Source: Liolophura sinensis
Lineage: Eukaryota; Mollusca; Polyplacophora; Chitonida; Chitonidae
Assembly (NCBI RefSeq): GCF_032854445.1
Contig: NC_088301.1
Location: 37,929,187-37,993,186 of the forward strand
Direction: 5' to 3'
DNA: 64,000 bases
Position numbers and translations under genes: made by a program. The notes beneath the pieces are model-generated. The model searched no databases. It saw only the letters and a list, made by a program, of their open reading frames with translations, and had not been told where the DNA came from. Below are positions 31,601 through 34,600 of the stretch, piece after piece; position 1 is the first letter of the stretch, and every line of letters begins with the position of its first letter.

Positions 31601-34600
31601 CAGGGCTGAAATACTGAAGACAATGTGAGTAAGAAACAGTACAAACTATATCATCAGAGCAAAACCATGGTGAACCCATCTACAGGAGAGAGCATGGGAC
31701 AGGTGGACATTTGGATGGCCAGAGTAACACTTGCATGAAGAAACATATATCACGCAGGTGAAATGGCTTCATTTAAAAAAAAAAAAAATAATAATGTACA
31801 TACTGTGGAGACTCTCCCAAGGGGTGTTGACAGGTACGTTGAGTGAGGCCCCATGACTTACCTGTATTCTCCAGCAGTGTTTTAGGGGTATTTGAGCGGT
31901 TGATGATATCTATGAGTGGACTAAGTACCAGGTTTACATATGGCCGCATGTCTGCACCTGTTGGAAGCAATCATCACACATATATACATGTAGGCTTTAT
32001 TACACACCTGTGAAACTTGACAAGTTTTTCAAAAGCATCTTATTTGGCACTATCTGTGTAGTCAAAGAAAACATTTCAACGACTTAACCTGTTTCTCTCA
32101 ATATTAACTTCAGCACATCTTTTAACCATGAGAGCTACATCTAAATATGGATGTACATGCACTTGTATCAGATCAACTTTTCCCCAAGACAGGTGAAGTT
32201 AGCCTGCTCAGAGTGGGTATGTCACTGATATTTCTCTTCTTTCTCGTTCCGATCTGACAGAAATGAATGTTCTACCAGGTGCGATTCATAGAGAAAGGTG
32301 ATAAATACTCACCAGGATGTTCATTTAATATAATATTTCGTTGGTGTTTGGTTTGTGTTTCACTTAATAAATGTATCTTTCACCACTTACCCATCTGCAT
32401 GGCAATTTCCCCAATTGCCCAAGTAGCATTATTACACACAGATATGAACTCCGGATTCAGGTTAGCTCCAAGTATTGGCATGAAATCACCTGTTTGGAAA
32501 ATAAAACAGTTACAATGATTCACTCAAATGTAAATGCGGAAAGGTGAAGAAAATAGGAGGTATCTTTTATTTTTATTGATCACTGAACTGAGACATTACG
32601 ATAACTAGAAGCAGAAGCATAGTCAGACAGTACGAATACCACAACAATCACCAGGCTGTTGTCAACCATCATCTGGTATAATGCTGTCATCATTCAAATG
32701 TTCTTTTTTCGTTTTAAAGCAGATTTACATATAGAAAAAAAAATTATAATAAAACAGGAATAAATTAGGCCCACTGTTCATGTCACTATCAATTACATAT
32801 GTACGTATTTTTTAAACTTCTTATGTCTTACAATTCACAAAAAATAAAAATAAAACATGGTAGTGGAGTTAATATGTCAAATCTTTTCAAGAAAATGAAA
32901 CATTAAGACTCACCAATACAAGGTTTAACGTGTTGAAAACAGGCCTTTGTTAAATCTCCGAGTAAAGCGAATGAACTTTGTCTCACCTCAGGCATCGGAT
33001 CCTGTTCAACGCAAGGCTAGATCAGATTTCATTCCCGCACATAACAAAGATTTACATTCAGACCTATACTATCCTACAGTGCAACTAAATCATCAAAAAA
33101 TATGACTGGATATCAAAGAAGAAGTAAAATCTATGTTGTGATGTTCTCTTGCAAAGGAATGTTGAAGGAAAAAGATACGTTACAACATATAAAGAGTAAA
33201 TACATAAAGCAGCAGTCCTCTTATCAATTATATTTATTAAGAAATCATTATTTCCTTAAATGCAGAATTAACAAATCCAGAAAGTGTTTTTGTAGTTACC
33301 ATGAATGCAAAATACACACAAAAATGATAATAGTTCCTACGCAAAAAGTTCATAAAAATTTCCTGTGTAGGCCCACGAGTACAACTGTAGGTACCCTAAT
33401 TAATTCTTCAACCCTTTCAACAACCATAACCATATTGCATATTGGGATCAATATTTGAAAACATTCTGAGAAAATTTGGGGATGGGGGAGGTAGAGAAAT
33501 AATCTGCACAGTTTTATGAAGTTTGCATCTTTAGTGACACAAACAAACTCATTTTTGGTATCATTTACACAATAAGTGTATGCATAAACTCCAATGGGGC
33601 AAAAAGAGCTTTACATAAAGGTTGAAGATTTACAGTATCCAGAATACCTGTACCTGAATTGGCCTTACCTGCATACACTGGAAGAGCAGTTTGAGAATAT
33701 TACTGTTAGCCACAAGTCCCTCGATGTGCTGTTCCAACCCCTCTGCCAGTCCGCTCAGCAAGTCCAGTGCCACAATCATGAAATCCTTATCTGGAGGGTC
33801 GAACTGATCGGGATGGGTCAGGCTTGCCTTAAGTAATTGCAAATCAAAATATACACAACCATTAAAATATGCAGACACATACATACTTGAAGAGCCATAA
33901 GAGAAATTCTACAATGCATGATGGCTGCACAAGCATGTGAAACAGCCTGGTTTCCTTGTGGTGAATCCAAATGGAGTTTGAAGAAACAAACCAGGTTTAA
34001 TTTTCTATCTGAAGATGTTGCACTCAAGAAGACTATTATTCAATTTGGAAAATTATCTCAATGAAATACTCTGAAGCAGATTAGCAACAGGGTCATTACA
34101 GACTATTTTAAAAGACAGCTGTCAAAAAGGAAACAGAAAAGAACTTACAAAATTCTGGTGCAAAGTTTGTTCCACTAAAGAAACACAGCGCTGATAAACC
34201 GGTTCGCAATATGGCAGGAAACCATTCTGAAGAGCAGTAGCCACACTGGATAAACACTGAAAAATAAAAAGCAGGCTTGAAAGAGGTAAATTTAGATTTA
34301 CTGTAGTCAAATCATGAATTTTAAACAATAAATGACATTAATGTTTAATCACAGATTACAAGTTTTAAAAAGGTAAGTTAGTAATTTCTCTGCCCACATT
34401 TAAAAACTGTAAGCATCAAGAATTTTGTAGACAGAAATCAAACAATAATTTAGGAACAGATTAGTTCTTTTGTTTTTTCTGAATTAACAATTTGCATTTC
34501 ACCAAATATAATGTATTTTGAGATCTTTACCCATTAACTTATGTATGTCATCTGTAGATACAATAAGTGATAAAGTACACGCTGTACAATGACCGCAGGC

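What the first reader, a model, noticed from the sequence alone, without database searches (positions are those of the whole stretch)
32620..32697. SNORD41-like box C/D snoRNA hidden in intron 17 of transportin
Seen: ATGATGA, a 12-nt guide GTATTCGTACTG and CTGA in correct order and spacing on the host strand. Known, from memory: the guide pairs with CAGUACGAAUAC in 28S rRNA, human SNORD41 has the same guide, and it sits in a TNPO2 intron. The D+5 base falls on the same U. A snoRNA and its host gene therefore seem to have stayed together since the common ancestor of molluscs and vertebrates, although host genes often change. No terminal stem is obvious, which is unusual and worth testing.
Basis: partly seen in the sequence, partly recalled or inferred. 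Interest (0 to 1): 0.8.

Follow-up and report, generated by a model that had tools for sequence, protein, structure and literature searches.

The report
SNORD41-like snoRNA inside chiton transportin gene
A short stretch inside an intron of a chiton's transportin gene looks like a small RNA that tells the cell where to place a methyl group on ribosomal RNA, apparently the same guide that humans keep in a transportin gene; a tidy find of a well-known type.

Summary
On the minus strand at 32697-32620 lie a C box (ATGATGA), a 12-nt guide (GTATTCGTACTG) and a D box (CTGA), in order, on the host strand. Rfam's SNORD41 model matches end to end with 28.5 bits, below its cut-off of 41. Guide plus D box has no match in 100 shuffles. 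The host is a 22-coding-exon transportin gene; my model equals an annotated protein of the chiton Liolophura sinensis except for three residues at another junction. The element lies in coding intron 17 (phase 1, 424 nt). Best reading: an intronic box C/D guide for 2'-O-methylation of a U in 28S rRNA (target letters recalled). The terminal stem is weak: 2 of 4 model pairs; an outer 7-bp stem is not clearly beyond chance. Long retention in transportin is plausible but rests on two lineages; human intron position, expression, methylation and chiton 28S were not testable. Kinship outside guide and C/D boxes is modest (46 and 195 of 5000 shuffles as good). A metazoan-deep snoRNA/host pair has a precedent, SNORD100/RPS12.

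The parts
32620..32697 (-). predicted mature box C/D snoRNA (SNORD41-like)
   Evidence: C box, guide, D box; RF00588 match 32699-32618; ends are a prediction from the rule of 4-5 nt before the C box and 2-5 nt after the D box reported for human snoRNAs in PMC4053766 (passages)
32687..32693 (-). C box ATGATGA
32662..32665 (-). candidate D' box TTGA, followed by C (a GAC motif), inside GTTGACA shared with the SNORD41 consensus
   Evidence: assignment inferred
32645..32651 (-). candidate C' box GTGATTG
   Evidence: inferred
32628..32639 (-). 12-nt guide GTATTCGTACTG, complementary to CAGUACGAAUAC
   Evidence: target letters recalled
32631..32631 (-). D+5 base (A), pairs with the predicted methylated U
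32623..32626 (-). D box CTGA
32698..32704 (-). 5' arm of possible imperfect outer stem AGAACAU
   Evidence: 65 of 500 (10-nt flanks) and 36 of 500 (15-nt flanks) shuffles as good, so weak
32613..32620 (-). 3' arm of the same stem AUGcUUCU (one bulged C)
32490..32913 (-). host intron (17th coding intron, phase 1, 424 nt, GT..AG)
   Evidence: junction agrees with annotated protein
32914..33001 (-). upstream coding exon 17 of transportin
   Evidence: peptide across exons 17 and 18 matches transportin-1 chains in the PDB
32391..32489 (-). downstream coding exon 18 of transportin
25569..60268 (-). transportin-1-like host gene, start to stop codon, 22 coding exons

Best explanation
An intron-encoded box C/D snoRNA, spliced out with intron 17 of the chiton transportin gene, debranched and trimmed to about 78 nt. 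Bound by the core C/D proteins at its C/D kink-turn, it pairs its 12-nt D guide with 28S rRNA and directs fibrillarin to methylate the 2'-O of the U five bases from the D box, the site guided by SNORD41 in humans (recalled). It most likely shares descent with vertebrate SNORD41 and was already in the single transportin gene before vertebrates split it into TNPO1 and TNPO2. Shown: boxes, guide, order, strand, host gene, intron. Inferred: expression, processing, methylation, homology.
For: RF00588 match end to end, same strand as host; guide + D box absent in 100 shuffles; guide+D+C expectation 8e-7 per window; D+5 geometry correct; the longest conserved blocks in the Rfam alignment are the C box region, GTTGACA, the 12-nt guide and the D box, with the bases on both sides of the guide changed; the middle part scores above chance against the consensus (global 46 of 5000 shuffles as good; local 195 of 5000); host is transportin, as for human SNORD41 (PMC6261634, passage); U4276 stands in a list of 2'-O-methylated rRNA positions measured in human glioma cells (PMC10657414, passage; that it is in 28S and guided by SNORD41 is recalled).
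Against: Score below Rfam's curated cut-off (28.5 vs 41). Only 2 of 4 terminal-stem pairs; the outer imperfect stem is matched by 65 of 500 and 36 of 500 shuffles (10- and 15-nt flanks), and pairing of 30-, 50- and 100-nt flanks by 158, 410 and 468 of 500. The RNA alone folds only slightly better than shuffles (z -1.21, 19 of 200 as good) and with flanks no better (z 0.60, 147 of 200). The D box lies 133 nt from the 3' splice site, farther than the optimum I recall for mammals. The longest shared word outside the guide, GTTGACA, is not rare in shuffles (539 of 3000). The eukaryotic LSU consensus is variable in the 3' half of the target, so the chiton target needs checking. No second mollusc, no RNA data.
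Confidence: 0.85

Rival explanations
1. A real box C/D snoRNA with the same target, but placed in transportin independently or after moving from another gene; the shared guide reflects the shared rRNA target and the shared host is coincidence.
For: Guide identity is forced by target identity; similarity outside guide and C/D boxes is modest; snoRNAs move between hosts, and no snoRNA was found stable in its intron across eukaryotic supergroups (PMC3511168, abstract and sections 8 and 11); a passage of PMC3412847 says that snoRNA hosts of Trichoplax are not conserved in human.
Against: Landing by chance in the orthologue of the human host gene is unlikely among thousands of broadly expressed genes (inference); the middle region scores above chance in global alignment (46 of 5000).
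Confidence: 0.1
2. A degraded relic of SNORD41: boxes and guide still readable, but poorly processed because the terminal stem is gone.
For: 2 of 4 stem pairs, sub-threshold Rfam score, long distance to the 3' splice site.
Against: C box, D box and all 12 guide bases are perfect while many other positions differ, the pattern of selection rather than decay; C/D RNAs without a terminal stem are known (title of Darzacq and Kiss 2000 seen in a reference list; cited in PMC4053766, passage).
Confidence: 0.04
3. Chance: a random 16-base match with a C box upstream.
For: No match at Rfam gathering score; low-complexity stretches in the same window give spurious sub-threshold hits with smaller E-values (mir-297, 6.2e-06).
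Against: Expectation 8e-7 per window, 0 of 100 shuffles, not low complexity, right gene and strand.
Confidence: 0.01

Closest known systems
SNORD41 / U41 (Rfam RF00588), human host TNPO2
   Same: C box, 12-nt guide, D box, D+5 base, GTTGACA block, transportin host, same-strand intronic location (human location: one table row, and recall)
   Different: 82 vs 70 nt over the aligned span (two inserts, 9 and 3 nt), 2 of 4 terminal-stem pairs broken, the innermost stem pair is G-C rather than A-U, score 28.5 under the cut-off of 41
Intronic box C/D snoRNAs lacking a terminal stem (Darzacq and Kiss 2000, title seen only)
   Same: weak stem next to the boxes, possible stem in flanking intron
   Different: here the flanking stem is not clearly beyond chance
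SNORD100 in RPS12 (sponges to vertebrates)
   Same: a snoRNA kept in one host gene over metazoan time (PMC3412847, passages)
   Different: ribosomal-protein host; checked there in several vertebrates and invertebrates, with expression verified, by that paper's own words

Membership tests
box C/D snoRNA | C box RUGAUGA and D box CUGA in order on the transcribed strand | tested here: met
   host strand
box C/D snoRNA | antisense element directly upstream of D (or D') with the target base at D+5 | tested here: met
   against recalled 28S letters; CAGUA is conserved in Rfam's eukaryotic LSU consensus, the rest of the site is variable there
box C/D snoRNA | terminal stem closing C and D (known exceptions exist) | tested here: inconclusive
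   2 of 4 model pairs; imperfect 7-bp outer stem, 65 of 500 (10-nt flanks) and 36 of 500 (15-nt flanks) shuffles as good
box C/D snoRNA | stable RNA bound by core C/D proteins | not testable with these tools
   no RNA data held
SNORD41 (RF00588) | Rfam covariance score at or above the gathering score (41) | tested here: not met
   28.5 bits; so I call it SNORD41-like and do not file it in RF00588
SNORD41 (RF00588) | guide GUAUUCGUACUG next to the D box | tested here: met
SNORD41 (RF00588) | sequence kinship beyond guide and C/D boxes | tested here: inconclusive
   46 of 5000 global, 195 of 5000 local, longest word 539 of 3000 shuffles as good; D' and C' box letters contribute
SNORD41 (RF00588) | carried in a transportin gene | tested here: met
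   human side PMC6261634 passage
SNORD41 (RF00588) | same intron position as in human TNPO2 | not testable with these tools
   no vertebrate DNA held; paper searches for coordinates gave none (0 papers; 40 of 433 listed, none opened)
SNORD41 (RF00588) | 2'-O-methylation of the 28S U | not testable with these tools
   needs RiboMeth-seq

The most novel reading that the evidence does not exclude
SNORD41 has sat in the same phase-1 intron of transportin since before molluscs and vertebrates parted, surviving the TNPO1/TNPO2 duplication, in a gene that is not a ribosomal-protein gene. Human SNORD41 has an m6A site at its D' box (PMC5579392, section 5, Table 1, one supporting experiment); if the D' meant is the UUGAC that the chiton shares, that GAC motif is kept, and with a second GAC now at the chiton D box, kink-turn assembly could be open to m6A control on both sides.
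Probability: 0.3. Interest if true: 0.5.

Novelty: new member of a known kind. Interest (0 to 1): 0.35.

Why it matters
If confirmed in other phyla it adds a non-ribosomal-protein example to the snoRNA/host pairs that outlasted the movement of snoRNAs between genes, and makes the question of why some pairs are stable testable: transportin intron 17 can be read in any sequenced animal. It also extends a sub-threshold Rfam family to a mollusc, which helps annotation.

Tried and rejected
Relatives: a scan of viral contigs for guide+N+CTGA gave 16 stretches; of 16, none has a canonical RTGATGA in the 100 nt before the guide, and three (L002, L006, L016, the same letters there) have an ATGATGT. No chance control was run for that scan; dropped. 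28S target: the recalled pattern gave 1 hit in viral contigs, L001, whose surroundings do not look like rRNA by eye (not scanned with Rfam), and 0 in genome contigs; a more conserved recalled LSU word gave 8 stretches in contigs of bacterial assemblies and 0 in viral contigs. Of the 8, one (L022) is cut before the site, one (L025) has CAGTACGTATAC, 11 of 12 letters, and the other six differ more, all judged by eye; only L025 was put to Rfam.

Other RNA candidates in the window: SNORD34 (24.1 bits, cut-off 38, plus strand, outside the coding span) and SNORA7 (21.4 bits, cut-off 100, host strand, in intron 18) and snoMe28S-C3422 (22.2 bits, cut-off 80, 32816-32881 plus strand) are far below cut-off and were set aside. 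Rfam scans cannot exclude snoRNAs of unknown families in the other introns.

Human intron position: sought through paper searches and look-ups of papers named from memory or from a reference list that are not held; not found. PMC10636164, which holds TNPO2, was seen in the listing and not opened. Also not held: Darzacq and Kiss and a Trichoplax paper. Opened without bearing on the question: PMC7072173, PMC3410860, PMC10324135. PMC4053766 mentions a human SNORD41B (passages); whether it lies in TNPO1 could not be seen.

Which D' box is meant in the human m6A table is not settled: the human consensus holds two GAC words (UGUGAC and UUGAC); only UUGAC is shared with the chiton.

Full report
Place and organism. 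The window is chiton DNA: a 22-coding-exon transportin gene runs on the minus strand from 60268 to 25569. Liolophura is a polyplacophoran mollusc. A peptide across exons 17 and 18 matches transportin-1 chains in the PDB (9 distinct sequences, E about 5e-37).

The element. On the minus strand C box 32693-32687, guide 32639-32628, D box 32626-32623, with D+5 an A that pairs with U. The host intron is 32913-32490, 424 nt, phase 1; 220 nt lie before the C box and 133 nt after the D box. It is intron 17 if coding introns are counted; upstream untranslated exons were not examined.

Is it more than chance? The guide followed by CTGA occurs once, never in 100 shuffles. C boxes alone are as common as expected, 33 against 29.9. 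Joint expectation is 8e-7 per window. Rfam independently names SNORD41 at this place: 28.5 bits, cut-off 41, E 0.0018 for 501 nt and 0.24 for the window over 4227 families; by division, about 6e-5 for this one family in this window (my arithmetic). Against it: nothing reaches the curated cut-off, and simple AT/GT repeats in the same window give miRNA hits with better E-values, so sub-threshold hits need the further evidence listed here.

Homology or convergence? Two snoRNAs with the same target must share a guide, so the guide says little on descent. Outside guide, C box and D box the middle region (47 nt, against 35 of the consensus) aligns to the SNORD41 consensus with 46 of 5000 shuffles as good in global and 195 of 5000 in local alignment; the longest shared word is reached in 539 of 3000. 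D' and C' letters contribute to that. The shared host is the stronger argument: human SNORD41 is co-annotated with TNPO2 (PMC6261634, one table row). I could not find the human intron position, nor any other animal's intron, so descent in place is likely, not shown.

Target. CAGUACGAAUAC in 28S is recalled. Rfam's eukaryotic LSU consensus shows UCAGUA conserved and the following bases variable (on L025, an LSU fragment in an assembly contig); L025 itself has 11 of 12 letters. U4276 stands in a list of 2'-O-methylated positions in human glioma cells (PMC10657414, one passage); that it is a 28S position guided by SNORD41 is recalled.

Terminal stem. Next to the boxes only G-C and U-A of four pairs form. 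Slightly further out AGAACAU pairs with AUGcUUCU (7 pairs, one bulge), -2.4 kcal/mol in 10-nt flanks and -3.5 in 15-nt flanks; 65 of 500 and 36 of 500 shuffles do as well. With 30-, 50- and 100-nt flanks 158, 410 and 468 of 500 do as well; for the two whole flanks of the intron 30 of 500, a long, gapped pairing that does not start next to the boxes on the 5' side. The RNA alone folds with z -1.21 (19 of 200 shuffles as good) and with flanks z 0.60 (147 of 200).

Literature. In the held library SNORD41 occurs in 21 papers (listing; no title names a mollusc); SNORD41 with TNPO2 in 1; U41 with snoRNA and transportin in 0. I saw no report of a mollusc SNORD41 within those searches, of which only 20 of 74 and 20 of 29 papers were listed. 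Hoeppner and Poole (PMC3511168; abstract, sections 8 and 11, passages) describe mobile snoRNAs with no intron-stable case across supergroups, and mention 14% positional conservation between birds and mammals. SNORD100/RPS12 shows a metazoan-deep pair (PMC3412847, passages); the same paper says Trichoplax snoRNA hosts are not conserved in human. Huang et al. (PMC5579392, passages and section 5) list an m6A site at the D' box of human SNORD41; the chiton RNA keeps a GAC at the candidate D' box and has another at D; whether the same D' is meant is open.

Verdict. A well-supported SNORD41-like intronic box C/D snoRNA in a chiton transportin gene; a new member of a known kind, with an attractive but untested case for very old snoRNA/host linkage.

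Noticed in passing
32622 and 32661 (minus strand): C after both the D box and the candidate D' box gives GAC (DRACH) motifs of the kind reported to be m6A-modified in a subset of human C/D snoRNAs (PMC5579392, section 5).
   Followed up: partly
L018-L025: Eight contigs filed under bacterial assemblies carry a eukaryotic-type LSU rRNA word; L025 is confirmed by Rfam as eukaryotic LSU, the other seven were not scanned; likely eukaryotic contamination.
   Followed up: partly
14855-15283 (+): A 142-residue open frame has leucine-rich-repeat matches (LRR_4 E 8.1e-06, 26.4 bits, just under its cut-off of 27; LRR_1 22.1 bits, above its cut-off of 20.6); possibly an exon of another gene or a relic. 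The nine other open frames in that call matched nothing.
   Followed up: no
32161-32296 (minus strand, host intron 18): A very weak SNORA7 (H/ACA) match, 21.4 bits against a cut-off of 100, E 4.5, on the host strand in the next intron; most likely chance.
   Followed up: no
55125-55259, 16889-16955, 11117-11186, 28465-28556: AT/GT microsatellites give sub-threshold mir-297, mir-1277 and mir-3149 hits with E down to 6.2e-06: a caution for unthresholded Rfam scans.
   Followed up: no
38122-38114 (intron 8 donor): My gene model lacks three residues (VNN) of the annotated protein; the DNA shows a good donor, GTAAGC, nine bases further on, so the annotated junction is right or both are used.
   Followed up: yes
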